Shown here: positions 9,101 to 44,746 of the stretch, one piece after another
Layout: each line of letters starts with the position of its first letter
Numbering within the stretch: the stretch's first letter is position 1
DNA from: Antedon mediterranea
Lineage: Eukaryota; Echinodermata; Crinoidea; Comatulida; Antedonidae
Length of the DNA stretch: 64,000 nucleotides
NCBI RefSeq assembly: GCF_964355755.1
Contig: NC_092674.1
Span: 7,135,001-7,199,000, forward strand
Direction: 5' to 3'
Position numbers and translations under genes: made by a program
Notes under the pieces: model-generated
Told to the model about the DNA's origin: nothing
Databases searched by the model: none
Seen by the model: only the letters and a program-made list of their open reading frames with translations

Positions 9101-12100
9101 TAGAGTGGTTTATTCCATGGATTTAATGAATAAAATCTATTCGTTAATACATGGTTATACAGAGAGGTAGTACACTATTTCACAACCAAACTCATGTTTG
9201 CTCATATACCTCTAATCATTGTTCGAGAATTAAATGTTGACCATATTGTGAAAAGTGTGTTTATATACAGTATGTCAATATGGTCGGATAGAATCCACAT
9301 TCTTAGATTTGTCTTGCTTGCTCTTTCTTTTGTCAAAAGCCACTTATACAAAACACATACTCTATTATTCTAGGTATACCATAACACTACAAAACACATT
9401 TTAGGCGACTATATGCTTAATACATTACAGTACTAACATACAGTAGCCTACCAATACCATACAGTACTTTAGTTTTTTGAAGTAGCCCAACCTTAGTAAC
9501 TGCCAATCTTAAGGTCCCGTACTTTAACAACTAGATTTTTACTGGTGGTAGGGCTGCCAATAGTATATCACAGATTTTCAGTTACAATGATTGAACACAT
9601 ACTACCAATTGTTTTGGTATTATTGATGTTGAAATGTATTGTAAATATGGATACATTTGAAACAATATATCAAATATAAAACCATAGAAACGTGTGTTCA
9701 TTTAAATGTAGTTTAAAACCTTCTGCATACAATTTCCTGTCATTTCCATTACCACTAATGCCTAAACTAAAGCCAGTTCAAATTTAGTTACAAAATCCTT
9801 CCGGTCATTTCTATACAGAAAAATAGCAGAAATTTGTATTGTAACAAACATTTAGCAAAAAGTGGTGAGTCTATTTTGGGCATATCTTACCTGGATAAAC
9901 CGACAAAATCCCGTGGTCTCCAGAGGGAGGGCTTAGATATAAAAAATGAAATTTGAATTTAGACACCATTTTTTTTTTTTTTTTTTTTGTTACTCTTCTT
10001 CTATCCGGACACTATTGAGTAAAAAGTGCGATTTATAAAGTACTACTCCTCCCTTATTCGTTGTAGTATTGAGCAGGGATTTGGCATGAATATACTACAG
10101 GGACATGTCCTCAAAGCTACATAGAGCGGGATCTTTTTATTTCAAACCGGATGCAGCCACGTCTCGAAGATGGTACCGTATAGCCGTATTTGGTAGCGAG
10201 GTTATTGATGTGTATGTGACGTTACACCCGGTCTTATGACGTCATTACAGCTTCTTTTGCTGTACCCCGAGTATTGCACATTCGTGCTTGTTTATAATAT
10301 AGATATTAGAAAATAATGAATTAACTGCTTTGTGTTAATATTCAATCAATTTTGACAAGCTTATAATTTTGACAAGAATAAGCTATACAATCAATATTTA
10401 TAGAAAGTGTTTTTTTACCATTTGACACAATAAGTCAATTATTGATTTTCACCACGTTATCTAATATGACGTTCATTGAATACTTATCAATTGGCTCTAT
10501 TTGCACTAATAATAATATTATTATTAAATATTATGAATAATAATTATATTTGTTGTATTGATAATAAACAATCATCTTGTAGCAGGTGTTTATGTTTTAT
10601 ATGAGGATAAATGATGTAAACAAAAACTATCTCGAAAAGAAATGATGATGGTGGTTTGTTGGGATGTTCCCACTTGAGGGCAGGGTTCATGGAATGTACC
10701 ATTATCTGACAGGGGTGTTTCAACATTTTTTTATATATATATTCGAGTTGTAGCTATCTTCTCGGCGAGAATAGGCCAATGTTGGTTTATCCAGGTAAGC
10801 TAGCACTTATAGAATACTAAGCCACTTTTGGTGTGTTTAATCAAATACAGTTCTGATGAAAAGATTGGTTCCCTATGACTTTAAATATTGGGAGTTGTTT
10901 TTGGAAAAAAGTACTATACAGTAGTATAGCTTAGTATTCTATAAGTGCTAGCTTACCTGGATAAACCAACATTAGCCTCTCTCTCCGACGAGATGTAAAC
11001 ATTACGAAAAGAAGAACATTAACTTTTTCACACCCTCCGAAGGTGCTAAGAGAAGGAATCTAGGCTTTAGTGGCACAGACTAACTAGTACCAGGGTAATA
11101 TTCTTAGTACATTGTGTACAGTATATTGATTGTATTTCAAATGTTTTGTTATTCTCTTTTTCAGTTGGATTTGGTGTATGTTAAATCACAAGCTGATGAG
11201 ATTAAAGAAGCGTAAGTACAGTACATAAAGCTCTATCTGTACTATCAAACTAGTTTGACATAAAAGTGTGATGTGCCCAAATATGGTAGTGATTTGACAT
11301 CATCGTATCCATGGGTACATCACTTTTTTGTTACATAAAGTTTGATAGTGTAGACAGAGCTTTTGCTATTATGTATATTTTTATTTTACAGTTGCTTTAA
11401 AAAAAGTTAAAATATTTTTTAAAATCATTTTACTACAGTAGAACCCCTCCTTTGGGACAGCCCTATTACGCGGGGACAGCCCTATTACGCGGGGACAGCC
11501 CTATTACGCGGGGACAGCCCTATTACGCGGGGACAGCCCTATTACGCGGGGACAGCCCTATTACGCGGGGACAGCCCTATTACGCGGGGACAGCCCTATT
11601 ACGCGGGGACAGCCCTATTACGCGGGGACAGCCCTATTACGCGGGGACAGCCCTATTACGCGGGGACAGCCCTATTACGCGGGGACAGCCCTATTACGCG
11701 GGGACAGCCCTATTACGCGGGGACAGCCCTATTACGCGGGGACAGCCCTATTACGCGGGGACAGCCCTATTACGCGGGGACAGCCCTATTACGCGGGGAC
11801 AGCCCTATTACGCGGGGACAGCCCTATTACGCGGGGACAGCCCTATTACGCGGGGACAGCCCTATTACGCGGGGACAGCCCTATTACGCGGGGACAGCCC
11901 TATCATTCCGATGAAACTAGCAAGTAACAATGTTTAAACATTACAGTATGCCCAACCCAGAGGACATCTCTATATAAGGGGACACTGTTTTGAGTCTGCA
12001 GTATGCCCAACCCAGAGGACATCTCTATTATTATAAGGGGACACTGTTTTGAGTGTGCAGTATGCCCAACCCACAGGACATCTCTATAAGAGGACACTGT

Positions 12101-37611: not shown

Positions 37612-39658
37612 TTACTCGCCTAGAATAATACATCTGTGTGCCCAAGCTCTTTTAACATAGTGCTTACAGTAACAATCAAAGATATTTGATATGGAATCGA
37701 CGTCATACATATAATGATAGTAGTTATCAGTTCCACCTAATACAAGATTTAATTTGGTGTTCAGGTCACCAGAGATAAAATTTTCCCATACATCTAAATG
37801 ATTGATATCGATTAACATATATTCTAATTTGGTATATTCTTCAATCCTTATGCCATTGAGTTGGTTACATGTGAATAGAAAATGTTGAATGTCTTCTAAA
37901 CCATTCTTACACATTTTACAGATACCATCATATTCAGGAAGCCACTTACAACTCCTGTGACCTAAAGGAAGGGTGTTAGAACGTAGTTTGAATTTGAGGC
38001 TAGATCCTAGAAAGTCTGTACAATTCAATAAATATTTTTCAAGGCACGGATTAGACTTAATAAGAGAGTATGTCTGAAGTGACGATTTTCTTAGCATTTC
38101 ACTTTTCCAAAATGCAAATGTTTGTGTCATGCATTAACTCTTTAAATCTCTTAACCCAATGACTATCAGGGTCATTGCCAAGGTAGGAAGTTTCGAAAAT
38201 TGAGTCAATGTCCATATTAATAGACGCACACGTCTTAGCAAAACTGGGAATCAGTTTATAGCGTGGTTCTACATTTGTAGTTGAACTTAAACACGTATTA
38301 AGCATAAAGTTAGGCCAACGGTGTTTATCCATGTTCATTACATAATTAATAAATTTGGCTCTAGATATATCTTGAATAACTTTAATTGGAACCCACCCTA
38401 AATCCCCATACAAGGCCTCTTTAGGTGTATTTCTACTAGCTTTTAAGATGTACCGCGCCATTTGTAATTGAAGTGACTCAATTTTATCAATATCTTTCCT
38501 GCTTTGGCTAACCCACACTGAACAAGCATAATTTATTGTAGGAAGAGCAATTGTTTTCCATACAATGTCACCATAGAAAATTCTACTAAAATTATCAAAT
38601 CGGTCTATAATTGACTTAATATAAGCAATGACTCTATTGCCTTTATTGATGATTTGGTCGATGTGAAAATGATCTGAAATATTTCTTGATATGCAAGTAC
38701 CAAGATATTTATAGGTTTCAACCTCAGAAATATATTGATCGCCCAATTTCCACATCTTATTGTTTATGCGCTGTCCAACAATAAGGACCTTCGACTTTTC
38801 ATGATTAAAATTTAATTTCCATGACTTTGCAAATTTAGATGCTAGATTGAGCATCTCACTCAGATCATTTTCATTGTTTGCCATAAGTACAACGTCGTCT
38901 GCCCAAAAAAGGCTACCCATGCATACATTATAAATACGAACACCTAGATCATGTTTTTTGAGTAATTTGGTAAACTCGTGCATAAGAATACAAAACAAAG
39001 TCGGTGATAAAACACATCCCTGTTTAACTCCTCCATCAATATTAAAGAATTTAGTGTCTATTTTACCAAATCTTACTTTACCTTGCACATTGTGATATAA
39101 ACTATCGATTAATTTCCATAGCCTACCTCTAATCCCAATATTCCATGCTGCCATTAGCATTCCTTCCCTCCAAACCGTATCGAAGCGGCTTTTTTAAAAT
39201 CTAAGAAAGCCATGAAGGTTTTTTTCCCTTCAAGCAGACGACAGGAAGCTATGCTTTTGAGGGTAAATATGTGATCCTCACATCGTCGCGAAGGTCTAAA
39301 CCCTCCCTGTACTTCTGACAACACATTTTTATCTTCCAGAAAGTTAGAAATATTGTTTGAAATGATTCGGTTAAATATTTTCGAGATACATGGAGTAAGG
39401 GAAATCCCCCTGTAGTTATTAAGATCCCTGCGGTCCCCCTTTTTATGAACGGGTACAATAATACTTTTATTCCAGTCATTTGGAACTTTTTCTAAAGCAA
39501 TTATTCTATTAAATAAAGAAAGGATTGACATATTCAAACATTGACCACCATTTTTTAAAATTTCATTAGTGATCGTGTCAATTCCAGGTGATTTATTGTT
39601 CTTTGACCTTAAAATTGCGGTTTCAACAATATCTAAATTCAATTCAACATCTGAGGCC
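37612..39658 (-). pseudogene. LINE reverse transcriptase domain (frameshifted)
   Basis: From 39658 down: NKSPGIDTITNEILK, IIVPVHKKGDRRDLNNYRGI, EVQGGFRPSRRCEDHIFTL, FMAFLDFKKA. A frameshift near 39190 moves the following AFDTVW to another frame. It continues from about 39189 with MAAWNIGIRG, GGVKQGCVLSPTLFCIL, the catalytic FWADDVVLM, NHEKSKVLIVG and YLGTCISRN. A second frameshift near 38115 leads to a C-terminal zinc-knuckle-like CKMCKNGLEDIQHFLFTC (zf-RVT type). Confidence 0.9.
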
Positions 39659-40476
39659 CTGTTTCTGCTGCCAACTAAATACCGTATATTATACGGTATT
39701 TTTTTAATACCGTATATATACGGTATATTTTTGGCAGCAGAAACTGCGCTCATAAAAAATATACCGTATTTTGTATACCGTATTTTCCCCACAAAATTTG
39801 TGGATAAAATACGGTATTTACAAATTTATACCGTATTTTTTGTACCCGTTTCTGCTGCCAATAAAAAATACCGTATTTTTTTTTACATGACAAAAGGTCA
39901 CCATTCGTGTTTTTATTTTCTGTCGCTGTTAGCTGCTTTACACACATGTATAGATATATTCGGCGAAAATGTGGAGCGAATACGTCACAGTTTTACTAAA
40001 TAAATGTGTGTGGGGAAGCTAAAATGTCTGACCAACTAAAAGGTAATAAAAGGGACAACCACATTTATAAAGACATTTCTAACAAAATAAAGCAGGAGTA
40101 TGGAATAAACTTGTCTCCAAAGCAAGTAAACTCAAAGCTGAAGAGCCTGCGAAAGCAGTACAACATTGCAAAATACAATAACTCGGGGAGGGAACGAATT
40201 AATTGTCCCCATTACGATGTTTTCTGTGCTCTCACAACATCTCTATCACTAGGGCTAGGCTGTTGAAAGTGAGACGTAAAACTTCCTTTATTGCGACTTT
40301 TAATTATCGATCAAATAAATGAATGGCAATTTGGGTAAAAAAGATGAAATTTAACACGACCACCCAAGAAGTATTGTTAGCAGAAACGGGGTACTAAAAA
40401 ATACGGTATAAAAAATACCGTATTTTATACCGTATTTTTATACCGTATTTTGAGCAGTTGCAGCAGAAACAGGCCC
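39655..40476 (+). mobile_element. Myb/SANT-only DNA element with ATACCGTAT arrays, copy 2
   Basis: 822 bp with TIRs GGCCCTGTTTCTGCTGCC / GGGCCTGTTTCTGCTGC and the target duplication TGA (39652-39654, 40477-40479), inserted into the LINE between its endonuclease and RT domains. It is inverted relative to copy 1 and nearly identical along its length. The same palindrome arrays flank the ORF at 40006-40266. Confidence 0.85.
40006..40266 (+). CDS. Myb/SANT-like DNA-binding domain protein of mobile element, copy 2
   Basis: 86 residues; differs from copy 1 by G9D, K26N and D35N. The core is [19 protein letters not shown] then [18 protein letters not shown], the helix-rich Myb/SANT-like DNA-binding fold. 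The first helix (MWSEYVTVLLNK, about 39970-40008) lies in another frame, as in copy 1. No acidic catalytic domain is present. DNA binding to the element's own palindromes is a hypothesis. Confidence 0.6.
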   Translation: MCGEAKMSDQLKGNKRDNHIYKDISNKIKQEYGINLSPKQVNSKLKSLRKQYNIAKYNNSGRERINCPHYDVFCALTTSLSLGLGC

Positions 40477-41880
40477 TGAGAGAAATTCATCAGTCGTTGT
40501 GGGCATTTTTTGTGGTTCTAATGTTATTAATAAAGGTATTAATTTGTTTAGTTCGTTCATCAATTTCGGCCAAATTAGTTTTACCTAATGTTTGCCAGTA
40601 ATCAAGGGCTATTTGGTTCATTTCCTTTTCGTCGGAGACTATTTCACTAGAATCTGGTCTTTTGATACAACTAACAGGCTGGTTACGATTACTGCCTTTT
40701 AACAGTTTCCAAAAATCGCTACAGTTACGTCCACCTTTGTTTGCCAATTCAATAGACTTATTCACACGCATTTCAGTTATTTTAGTTTTAATCAGTTCTT
40801 TAGCATAAGACCGTTTCTCTTGGTAAGATTTCCATAAATCATCACCATTCTTATTGGGGTCGAGACCCTTAGCCCATCTACGATGAAGACGCGATGCTTC
40901 CCTTCTATCTTTAGGCCTAATAGCCGCATCGACATTTTCATCAAACCAAGAGTTGCATTTAATGTTAAAATTATTTTTCTTAATTCCTATACCCTTTGTC
41001 GCGGCCAATATAAGGTTATTTTTCCATGAATCCCAAAGACAATTAACATCATTAAAGGAATCTGCATCCCATTCGCGAAACAATATCCGAATGTGTTGCT
41101 TAAACAAAGACAAATCTTGATTCCTTTGGATATTCCAACATATTATGCTATTTTGATAATTAATATTTTTATGATAGATATTATTAATATATAATTTAAG
41201 GAGAAGGACATTGTGGTCACTCCCAAGACCCATCACCCTGTCGTCATCAATAATAAATTCATTTACACAATTGAGTACACTATTAGAGCATAACATGTAA
41301 TCAATTGTACTTTGCAAGTTATTCCTGAACCATGTAAATTTCCCCGTACAATGATCACTACAATTTAAAATAGCTAAGTTTGAATTGTCACGAAAATTCA
41401 ATAGCCGTACACCATTAGAGTTTAAAACAGGATCACCATTGGATATTTCCCCACCGATTCTGGCATTCATATCCGACATCACAATAATTTTGGGATCAGT
41501 ATTATCATCTTCAATACGTAAAATTTCAGCGAGAAGCTGGTTGTATAATTCGTCAGTCAGATTACTGTCAGAACCTTCAACAGGGAAATATGCAACAGCA
41601 ACGAATAAAGTTTCGTTTTGGTTACCATTATACTATAGCATAATTTTAACCAAAAACTTTCGTAAACATCAGACATTGAATTAAAAACATCATCATCAAG
41701 AACAGTTATACAATCAGAGATGAATGCACCAATACCACCACCTCCTTTAATTTTCCTACTTTTACCAATCCAACGAAATCCGTTGACATAATCAATATTT
41801 ACATTTGCCTTTACTTTAGAAATGTTTCTGCCACGCCAAAAACATGTATATTACAATCGTGTAAAAACTTTGAAATTTCA
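40477..41880 (-). pseudogene. LINE apurinic-like endonuclease domain (decayed)
   Basis: In reading order: an AET block (VFGVAET after a frameshift), KGGGGIGAFISD, a frameshift near 41600, then MSDMNARIGGE, CTGKFTWFRNN, STIDYML and LGSDHNVLLL. These are the conserved APE-type endonuclease motifs, including the SDH signature. The longest open stretch is 40490-41482. Downstream linker residues run up to the inserted DNA element. Confidence 0.85.
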
Positions 41881-42512: not shown

Positions 42513-42599
42513 GTTTTTATTTGAATACTGCCATCTATAGTTTCTCAGTTAATCGATATTTATATGACGAAATAAATGGTTATTATCCGTTTTCAATTG

Positions 42600-42695
42600 G
42601 GCTGGCTTGGCTAAGTGGTTACTTCGTTTAAATGAATTCATATGATATTATTTGTCCAAACACAAATCAACCACTGGCGCTGTCCAGTCCTTTTT
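42600..42695 (+). ncRNA. Vault RNA gene, copy 1
   Basis: RNA polymerase III transcript of the vault ribonucleoprotein particle. The 5' end GGCTGGCTTGGCTAAGTGG.TTACTTCG and 3' end TGGCGCTGTCCAGTCC followed by T5 closely match the conserved ends of vertebrate vtRNA1 (GGCUGGCUUUAGCUCAGCGG at the 5' end, GGCGCUCUCCAGUCC at the 3' end). The ends pair as a terminal stem (GGGCTGG with CCAGTCC). Box A (TGGCTAAGTGG) is good; box B is weak (AATCAACCAC region). A PSE-like CCATCTATAG sits at about -69, an AT-rich TATA-like stretch at -40 to -28, and a CRE further up. The terminator is 42691-42695. Confidence 0.85.
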
Positions 42696-43103
42696 ATTCC
42701 ACTATTTATTACCTGTCCTACCTATACATTTAATCATTGATCTTCTGGTCACCGAAATTATACGATAATTATACTCTATTTACATATTTTATTAGTAGTG
42801 TATTACTTTTGGCAAGACGGGAGTTCAAGAGAGGACGTACCTAGTTACCAAATTAATTACTTTGTGCTTTTTTTTGACAAACATTGATAATTTATTTTTT
42901 TAACGCAATTAACATCGGTTATATTCGTTTTCATTCAATTCCCTCTGCTTTTTTTTTAAGAAACACAGGCAAATAATATGGCACAACATAGAGCATGACC
43001 ACAACCATCATTGTTTTATTTAAATACTGCCATCTATAGTTTATCAGTTAGTCGATATTATGACGAAATGGTTATAAGCTTATTTACCATCCGTTTTCAA
43101 TTG

Positions 43104-43197
43104 GGCTGGCTTGGCTGAGTGGTTACTTCGTTTAAACACAATTTGCTAATTTGTCAATACAACACTAACCAACCACTGGCGCTGTCCAGTCCTTTTT
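43104..43197 (+). ncRNA. Vault RNA gene, copy 2
   Basis: Same conserved ends as copy 1: GGCTGGCTTGGCTGAGTGG.TTACTTCG and CTGGCGCTGTCCAGTCC plus T5. The middle differs (ACACAATTTGCTAATTTG..). The PSE-like TACTGCCATCTATAG block and the TTCAATTGG immediately before the start are shared with copy 1. The whole 0.46-kb unit is a tandem duplication of copy 1's unit, but the CRE is not duplicated. Confidence 0.85.
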
Positions 43198-43615
43198 ATT
43201 CCACTATTTCTAACATGCATACATGTAATCATTAATTTTCCGGTGGGCTTGTAATCACCGAAAATCTAAAATAATAATAATAATGTAGTAATTTTAGTAC
43301 TGTATCACTTTTGACAAGACGGAAGTTCGAGCGAGGACGTACCTAATTACCTTTTAAAAAAAAATTAATTACTTTATGTTTTTGTTTTGTGACAACCATT
43401 AATTATTTATATTTTTAACGCAATTAACATCGGTTTTATTCGTTTTCATTCAATTCCTTCTTTTTTTTAGAAACACAATAGTTTTGTAAAACGAATTTTG
43501 CTGTATATAATAATAATAGTACAGTAGTACTAATACTAATAGAACAACGCCCCCTATGTATTGCATAACACCCTCGTCATAGAATATAACGTTAAATACC
43601 CAATACATTCTCTTG

Positions 43616-43707
43616 GGGCGGCTTGGCTAAGTGGTTACTTCGAAAACACGGACTTTTGGCTATGTTGTGATACTGCAATTGTACCATTGGCGCTGTCCGT
43701 CCTTTTT
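43616..43707 (+). ncRNA. Vault RNA gene, copy 3 (diverged)
   Basis: The 5' end GGGCGGCTTGGCTAAGTGG.TTACTTCG and 3' end ATTGGCGCTGTCCGTCC plus T5 keep box A and both ends. The central region is unrelated to copies 1 and 2. The terminal stem has changed coordinately: GGGCGG pairs with CCGTCC, one base pair shorter than in copies 1 and 2. Upstream are a PSE-like CCCCCTATG at about -66 and a clear TATA (ATATAAC) at about -30. Confidence 0.8.
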
Positions 43708-44674: not shown

Positions 44675-44746
44675 AGGTCCCACCGAGATTTGAACTCGGA
44701 TCGCGAGATTCAGAGTCTCGAGTGCTGACCGTTACACCATGGGACC
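44675..44746 (-). tRNA. tRNA-Gln (anticodon CTG)
   Basis: On the minus strand the 72-nt cloverleaf starts GGTCCCATGGTGTAACGG and ends CGGTGGGACCT. The acceptor stem GGTCCCA pairs with TGGGACC; the anticodon loop is CTCTGAA (anticodon CTG); the T arm has GAGTTCAAATCTC. It closely resembles metazoan tRNA-Gln(CTG). A T-run terminator follows (minus strand, about 44655-44669). Confidence 0.95.

What the first reader, a model, noticed from the sequence alone, without database searches (positions are those of the whole stretch)
42600..43707. Three tandem vault RNA genes
Three loci share the vault RNA hallmarks: a GGCTGGCTTGGCTAAGTGG-type 5' end with box A and TTACTTCG, variable middles, a 3' end GGCGCTGTCC(A)GTCC and a T5 terminator. 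The ends form the terminal stem. The match to vertebrate vtRNA1 ends is from established knowledge; the sequences are seen directly. Vault RNAs are short, poorly conserved and usually missed by annotation, and a three-gene cluster in an invertebrate is informative.
Basis: partly seen in the sequence, partly recalled or inferred. Interest (0 to 1): 0.85.

Follow-up and report, generated by a model that had tools for sequence, protein, structure and literature searches.

The report
Vault RNA genes lacking box B
Three small genes in an invertebrate genome, probably of a sea-star or acorn-worm relative, are vault RNA genes by sequence and structure, but they lack one of the two internal start signals that such genes normally carry and may lean on signals in front of the gene instead, unlike a second set of vault RNA genes found elsewhere in the same genome.

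Summary
All three loci match Rfam vault RNA RF00006 well above its gathering score (61.3, 58.0 and 49.5 bits against 34), with box A, stems kept by compensatory changes, and T5 terminators. The genome search found seven more matches above cut-off and one below it, all in one cluster on another contig. MVP, PARP4-like and p62-type UBA matches are also present.

Seven of seven above-cut-off copies in the other cluster have a perfect box B, four inside a tRNA-like segment. The three window genes have none above background. Ten of eleven genes have an ATF/CREB half-site upstream, as described for vertebrate vault RNA genes. It is absent at the 13 tRNA and 9 U6 genes checked, but present at 7SL genes. 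In seven of eight other-cluster genes a C/EBP-ATF hybrid word stands at -49/-48.

Best reading: vault RNA genes that lost box B and depend on box A plus upstream elements. Expression is untested. A new variant of a known kind; moderate interest.

The parts
42599..42695 (+). vault RNA gene V1 with T5 terminator
   Evidence: RF00006 61.3 bits, model 1-99; T5 at 42691-42695
43103..43197 (+). vault RNA gene V2 with T5 terminator
   Evidence: RF00006 58.0 bits; T5 at 43193-43197
43615..43707 (+). vault RNA gene V3 with T5 terminator
   Evidence: RF00006 49.5 bits; T5 at 43703-43707
42608..42618 (+). box A of V1 (TGGCTAAGTGG)
   Evidence: sequence; alignments; box A consensus recalled
43112..43122 (+). 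box A of V2 (TGGCTGAGTGG)
   Evidence: sequence; alignments
43624..43634 (+). box A of V3 (TGGCTAAGTGG)
   Evidence: sequence; alignments
42565..42573 (-). ATF/CREB half-site upstream of V1 (TGACGAAAT on +; ATTTCGTCA on -), at -35
43061..43069 (-). ATF/CREB half-site upstream of V2 (same word), at -43
43575..43579 (+). CGTCA half-site upstream of V3, at -41; ATTGCATAA at 43560-43568
43072..43077 (+). TATA-like TTATAA upstream of V2, at -32
43585..43589 (+). TATA-like TATAA upstream of V3, at -31
42525..42543 (+). 19-nt element shared upstream of V1 (-75), identical in V2
   Evidence: 2 matches in the window with up to 3 mismatches, 0.01 expected
43024..43042 (+). same 19-nt element upstream of V2 (-80)

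Best explanation
The three loci are genuine vault RNA genes, transcribed by RNA polymerase III into RNAs of about 91-96 nt whose ends pair into the vault RNA terminal stem. They belong to a two-cluster vault RNA family of one animal genome. The other cluster keeps the usual internal promoter (box A + box B). The window cluster has lost box B together with the internal segment that holds it. It most likely starts transcription from box A plus an upstream ATF/CREB-type half-site (-35 to -43) and a TATA-like stretch, i.e. the external half of the known composite vault RNA promoter. Steps shown: match to RF00006, conserved stems, no box B match above background, presence and enrichment of the upstream word, MVP and PARP4-like matches. 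Steps inferred: that loss rather than gain explains the difference, that the genes are transcribed, that TFIIIB is recruited without box B, that ATF/CREB factors bind, and that the RNAs enter vaults or act on p62.
For: RF00006 matches for all three. Covariation on 10 copies: 94.7% of cells paired, 5 of 17 pairs changed on both sides, 1 of 500 shuffles as high. Between V1 and V2 the gene ends are 55 of 56 identical, the middle 19 of 38 and the downstream flanks 210 of 250, so the ends are conserved beyond their flanks. Box B (11 of 11 positions) is in 7 of 7 other-cluster copies above cut-off and in 0 of 3 window copies; the best window-gene score of 9 is at background, 571 such hits in 64 kb. 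CGTCA/TGACG lies within -80..-30 in 9 of the 10 genes above cut-off, is the top word of all 5-mers there, and 0 of 1000 random sets reach it; 7 of 8 after dropping V1 and L010 as near duplicates. It is in 0 of 13 neighbouring tRNA genes and 0 of 9 U6 genes within 110-120 bp. [quoted passage not shown] MVP and two PARP+VIT loci are present.
Against: No expression data. Box B is given as part of all vault RNA genes (passage in PMC7904556), so its loss could mean little or no transcription. V1 has no TATA-like word at -32..-28; its AT-rich words start at -43 to -39. In V1 and V2 the half-site is in the opposite orientation to the hybrid word of the other cluster. The half-site is not special to vault genes: 5 of the 6 7SL loci read have it within -80..-30 and 6 of 6 within 100 bp. 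It was first noticed by eye in the same sequences in which it was then tested. Number of further pair types is not above shuffles (236 of 500), and two of the three window genes do not fold clearly better than shuffles. TEP1, the RNA-binding vault protein, was not found (weak test), although sea urchin is reported to have it (passage in PMC550661).
Confidence: 0.75

Rival explanations
1. The window copies are decaying vault RNA pseudogenes: a cluster that lost box B and is no longer transcribed.
For: Box B absent in 3 of 3; the middle differs strongly between V1 and V2 (19 of 38 identical); V2 and V3 do not fold clearly better than shuffles; no expression evidence.
Against: They match the family model better than the box B-bearing copies (49.5-61.3 bits against 38.6-48.6). 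Stems are kept with compensatory changes. Ends are 55 of 56 identical while flanks have diverged to 210 of 250. T5 terminators and the CRE-type half-site are kept, an element reported missing from human vault pseudogenes (PMC7058938 section).
Confidence: 0.15
2. The window genes do use a box B, placed outside the gene: a conserved AGTTCRAGMGA about 130 bp behind the terminators of V1 and V2 (42822, 43324), as in the yeast U6 gene (recalled).
For: The stretch is conserved in V1 and V2 (62 of 70 identical over 42791-42860). A second box B behind the gene is described for human VTRNA1-1, there with a negative effect (PMC7058938 section).
Against: It scores only 9 of 11 against box B, a level met 571 times in the window; the neighbouring flank is as conserved (85 of 95); behind V3 the only hit of that level (43859) is a different word.
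Confidence: 0.06
3. The other cluster is not vault RNA at all but decayed tRNA genes or a tRNA-derived repeat, and only the window copies are vault RNAs.
For: 4 of the 7 copies also pass the tRNA gathering score (35.5-49.8 bits) and ARAGORN of the 7 tRNA; they lie near 13 minus-strand tRNA genes.
Against: All 7 pass RF00006 over its full length; the tRNA match lies inside, with acceptor-stem mispairs in the three best; the vault stems pair and covary across both clusters; the 3' end was found only in the two clusters (9 hits with up to 2 mismatches), which speaks against a dispersed repeat.
Confidence: 0.04

Closest known systems
Vertebrate vault RNAs, VTRNA1 locus (Rfam RF00006)
   Same: Length, terminal stem, box A, T-run terminator, small tandem cluster, upstream CRE-like and TATA-like elements (vertebrate features from passages and sections).
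   Different: The window genes lack box B, which a review gives for all vault RNA genes (passage in PMC7904556). No protocadherin or ZMAT2 match among the 10 window ORFs scanned, of 34 listed at 90 aa or more; a limited test.
Eutherian two-locus arrangement VTRNA1 / VTRNA2
   Same: Two loci of one family with different promoter structure (PMC7058938 section).
   Different: Here the difference is the presence or absence of the internal box B and of a tRNA-like segment; the loci lie on different contigs and no homology of the loci was tested.
Sea urchin vault RNA
   Same: Probably the same larger group (Ambulacraria); an RNA component of purified sea urchin vaults was seen as an RNase-sensitive band (PMC550661 passages).
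   Different: No sea urchin sequence was available here for comparison.
EBER and 7SL type Pol III genes with upstream CRE
   Same: Internal boxes with upstream CRE and TATA-like box (PMC7279448 passages); TGACG/CGTCA words lie within 100 bp upstream of 6 of the 6 7SL loci read here, of 19 matches.
   Different: The C/EBP-ATF hybrid word of the other vault cluster is absent, at up to 1 mismatch, from those 6 upstream regions.

Membership tests
Vault RNA (RF00006) | Covariance model score above the gathering threshold | tested here: met
   61.3, 58.0, 49.5 bits against 34
Vault RNA (RF00006) | 5' and 3' ends pair in a terminal stem kept by compensatory changes | tested here: met
   RNAalifold on 10 copies and pair counts: 95.7% and 94.0% of cells paired in the two helices, 5 of 17 pairs changed on both sides
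Vault RNA (RF00006) | Internal box A | tested here: met
   TGGCTRAGTGG in V1-V3; consensus recalled, seen by eye
Vault RNA (RF00006) | Internal box B | tested here: not met
   Best 9 of 11 in V1-V3, background level; 11 of 11 in 7 of 7 above-cut-off copies of the other cluster. The RNA is filed by its sequence and structure; the gene is filed as a promoter variant
Vault RNA (RF00006) | Upstream CRE-like element near -50 and TATA-like box near -28 | tested here: inconclusive
   Half-site at -35, -43, -41 in V1-V3 and in 9 of the 10 genes above cut-off. TATA-like word at -32 in V2 and -31 in V3, none at that place in V1
Vault RNA (RF00006) | Pol III terminator (T4 or more) | tested here: met
   T5 at all three
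Vault RNA (RF00006) | Host has vaults: MVP, PARP4, TEP1 genes | tested here: inconclusive
   MVP repeats and shoulder domain and two PARP+VIT loci found; TEP1 not found with PF05386, and the TROVE locus also carries a vWA_Ro60 domain
Vault RNA (RF00006) | Transcribed, 5'-triphosphate RNA associated with vault particles | not testable with these tools
   No RNA data available
tRNA genes (for the other cluster) | Functional cloverleaf with paired acceptor stem | tested here: not met
   Acceptor-stem mispairs in the cmscan alignments of the three best copies; in 4 of 4 segments folded, energy is no better than shuffles (z +0.08 to +1.16)

The most novel reading that the evidence does not exclude
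One animal runs two promoter classes for the same vault RNA family. One cluster uses box A plus a tRNA-like segment with box B and a C/EBP-ATF site at -49/-48, in some copies the amino-acid response core. The other has shed box B altogether and is driven from box A and upstream bZIP/TATA elements, i.e. a step from an internal (type 2) towards an external (type 3-like) Pol III promoter caught within one gene family. The fixed C/EBP-ATF site would place vault RNA output under the integrated stress response, so that amino-acid shortage changes vault RNA and, through p62, autophagy.
Probability: 0.25. Interest if true: 0.75.

Novelty: new variant of a known kind. Interest (0 to 1): 0.5.

Why it matters
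Vault RNA sequences are hard to find outside vertebrates and their control is poorly understood. A genome with eleven copies found in two clusters, one with and one without box B, is a natural experiment on which promoter parts a vault RNA gene needs. The upstream element resembles the one described in mammals in kind and place, so the composite promoter could be as old as deuterostomes if the host is an ambulacrarian. The match of part of the other cluster's elements to the amino-acid response core gives a simple test of whether vault RNA output is stress-controlled.

Tried and rejected
Host identity. No COX1 match in the assembly. A bantam microRNA search gave nothing but is uninformative, since nothing rang in its controls. 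Two paper searches for genome notes did not name the species. A recalled miR-2012 mature sequence matched twice with one mismatch, with none in the reversed control. Folded over 1480-1580 of the two loci the hairpins have z -5.24 and -2.66; over 1440-1545 the values were -2.17 and +1.60. This supports Ambulacraria but rests on my recall of the sequence and of its taxonomic range; 'crinoid' was only a guess from contig sizes, and merely looked up one crinoid's lineage.

U6-like PSE. U6 upstream regions were aligned and, by eye, shared no clear element with V1-V3. Of 14 U6 matches 10 loci were fetched and 9 used; L026 was dropped because its match did not start like U6. L025 is a partial match (1-71 of 105) and was kept.

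Downstream box B-like word: rejected as background.

Stable cloverleaf of the tRNA-like segment: not supported by folding energy, so I claim tRNA likeness by model score only. L008 and L010 fall below the tRNA gathering score (23.2 and 22.4 bits); L007 and the eleventh copy have no tRNA match at E up to 1.

Further copies: the family search scored 49 of 20099 first-look candidates, and the 3'-end pattern misses 2 of the 11 known copies (V3 and L007), so more diverged copies may exist.

Conserved block at 42902 and 43417, about 200 bp upstream of V2 and V3: 2 matches in the window, 0.01 expected; no copy in front of V1, and it lies in the duplicated flank. Left unexplained.

TEP1: PF05386 gave no match; with a 29-position model this does not show absence.

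Two alignments served only as steps: A1 and A3 of six tRNA-like segments, on which no pair count was made.

Full report
The finding. The sequence is as described, and the proposed test was run. Rfam RF00006 matches all three over the full model length on the + strand, at 42599-42694 (61.3 bits), 43103-43196 (58.0) and 43615-43707 (49.5), with a gathering score of 34. The only other gathering-level match in the 64 kb is a tRNA at 44675-44746 on the - strand; ARAGORN reads it as tRNA-Gln (CTG).

Not chance, and not only primary sequence. The same family search over the host genome (354 Mb, 18 contigs) gave 10 matches, all over the cut-off: the three of the window (contig C5) and seven within 7.6 kb on contig C4 (3309424-3317024), all on the + strand; 49 of 20099 first-look candidates were scored, so this is a lower bound. 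A 19-base 3'-end pattern with up to two mismatches hit 9 places, all in these two clusters, and 0 in the reversed control; one was a new, eleventh copy, which scores 22.7 bits, below the gathering score. The pattern misses V3 and L007. On an alignment of the 10 copies RNAalifold finds a terminal stem and a second helix. On that structure 94.7% of 170 cells pair, 5 of 17 pairs have a change on both sides (shuffle mean 1.5; 1 of 500 as high), and sliding the partners by one to three columns gives 17-50% paired. The number of further pair types is not above the shuffles (14 against 13.4; 236 of 500 as high). Because the structure was derived from the same alignment, the slid control leans towards it. 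V3 keeps the terminal stem through two pairs changed on both sides (read). Folding energy alone is weak evidence: among the three window genes z is -2.39, -0.86 and -0.37.

Selection. V1 and V2 are a tandem duplication that includes flanks. Aligned, the gene ends are 30 of 31 and 25 of 25 identical and the middle is 19 of 38. The three downstream sections are 63 of 85, 62 of 70 and 85 of 95; gap columns are left out. The middle differs more than the flanks (Fisher p 1e-5) and the ends less (p 0.002). Paired ends with a variable centre is what is described for vault RNAs (section read in PMC7058938).

V1, V2 and V3 reach at most 9, a level met 571 times in the 64 kb. The alignments show that the window copies lack most of the stretch that holds box B. 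In four of the seven that stretch also matches the tRNA family RF00005 above its gathering score (49.8, 45.4, 44.0 and 35.5 bits), nested inside the vault match; two more fall below it (23.2 and 22.4 bits) and one has no tRNA match. The eleventh copy has none at E up to 1, though a GGTTCGATCCC word is visible in it. ARAGORN calls a tRNA in 5 of the 7. Acceptor stems show mispairs in the three best, and in 4 of 4 segments folded the energy is no better than shuffles. So I call the segment tRNA-like, not a tRNA. That cluster lies near 13 minus-strand tRNA genes, 10 of them called tRNA-Arg (CCT anticodon). That the window genes lost, rather than never had, box B is inferred from the RF00006 consensus, which holds a box B-like stretch.

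Upstream elements. CGTCA/TGACG occurs within -80..-30 of 9 of the 10 genes above cut-off, the exception being L007. It ranks first among all 5-mers there (binomial 2.2e-11), and 0 of 1000 sets of random stretches reach that; after dropping L010 and V1 as near duplicates it is 7 of 8. It is absent within 110 bp of 13 of 13 neighbouring tRNA genes and within 120 bp of 9 of 9 U6 genes. It is not special to vault genes: of the 6 7SL loci read (of 19 matches), 5 have it within -80..-30 and 6 within 100 bp. Caveat: I saw the word by eye before testing it. The eleventh copy also has it, as TGACGTCA. In the other cluster a longer word stands at -49/-48: of 8 genes (eleventh included) 2 have ATTGCATCA, 4 ATTGCGTCA, 1 ATTTCATCA, and L007 none. 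The exact word ATTGCRTCA occurs once in the 64-kb window, once in 9.9 kb of L028 and not in 9.9 kb of L029; at up to one mismatch it is in 0 of 13 tRNA and 0 of 9 U6 upstream regions and 0 of 6 7SL ones. V1 and V2 have a one-mismatch version in the other orientation; V3 has CGTCA at -41 and ATTGCATAA at -56. TATA-like words start at -29/-28 in 5 of the 7 above-cut-off genes of the other cluster and at -32 and -31 in V2 and V3; the eleventh copy shows TTTAAAT at about -28.

Comparison with what is known. CREB/ATF sites around -50 are described for vtRNA, 7SL and EBER genes, and TATA-like boxes at -31/-24 for such genes (passages of PMC7279448). [quoted passage not shown] Box A and box B are stated for all vault RNA genes (passage of PMC7904556). 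ATTGCATCA is the core of the amino acid response element of CHOP, SNAT2 and ATF3, with core (A/G)TT(G/T)CATCA (passages of PMC3006201), which 3 of the 8 other-cluster genes fit. TGACGCAAT, the reverse complement of ATTGCGTCA (4 of 8), is a hybrid site bound by C/EBP-Jun heterodimers (passage of PMC7412551). A search for papers holding both 'vault RNA' and 'ATF4' found 16, 10 listed; I read one passage of one of them and saw there no statement of ATF4 control of vault RNA genes, so I cannot say that none exists. The listings showed no title or abstract start on vault RNA genes without box B; the key 2009 paper on vault RNA evolution is not held, so such genes may be in print.

Vault machinery. 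MVP repeats and shoulder domain are present, as are two loci with PARP followed by VIT, the PARP4 order (order recalled); in one (L033) the VIT match as scored reads over two stops, which may be an intron or damage. The TROVE locus found carries a vWA_Ro60 domain, so it is Ro60. TEP1 was not found, which is weak evidence. A UBA_5 match, the p62 type (recalled), is present.

Host. Two tandem hits to a recalled miR-2012 sequence, folding as hairpins in one of two stretches tried, suggest Ambulacraria.

Verdict. Vault RNA genes: near certain by family model and comparison of structure. Promoter: box B tested and not met, so a variant. Function: unproven. I think the window genes are transcribed from box A plus upstream elements, because ends, stems, terminators and half-sites are kept; loss of function is the main rival.

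Noticed in passing
L027 (G000:C4:3306500-3316400): 13 minus-strand tRNA genes, 10 of them called tRNA-Arg (CCT anticodon), interleaved with plus-strand vault RNA genes.
   Followed up: partly
G000:C3:2026936-2039706: 18 of the 19 7SL (SRP RNA) matches lie in one tandem array; the 5 array copies whose upstream regions were read share TATGTAAATAACGAGG at about -40, with one base changed further on in one copy.
   Followed up: no
window 42902-42920 and 43417-43435: Identical 19-nt block about 200 bp upstream of V2 and V3, inside a longer well-conserved stretch; no copy upstream of V1.
   Followed up: partly
window 37612-41850 (-): LINE-type element with endonuclease and reverse transcriptase open frames just upstream of the vault cluster.
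   Followed up: no
window 11401-11937: Repeat open in three frames (repeating [19 protein letters not shown]).
   Followed up: no
G000:C7:27617213 and 27617920: Two tandem miR-2012-like sequences.
   Followed up: partly
L032 and L033: Two PARP4-like loci (PARP followed by VIT) on contigs C9 and C7.
   Followed up: partly
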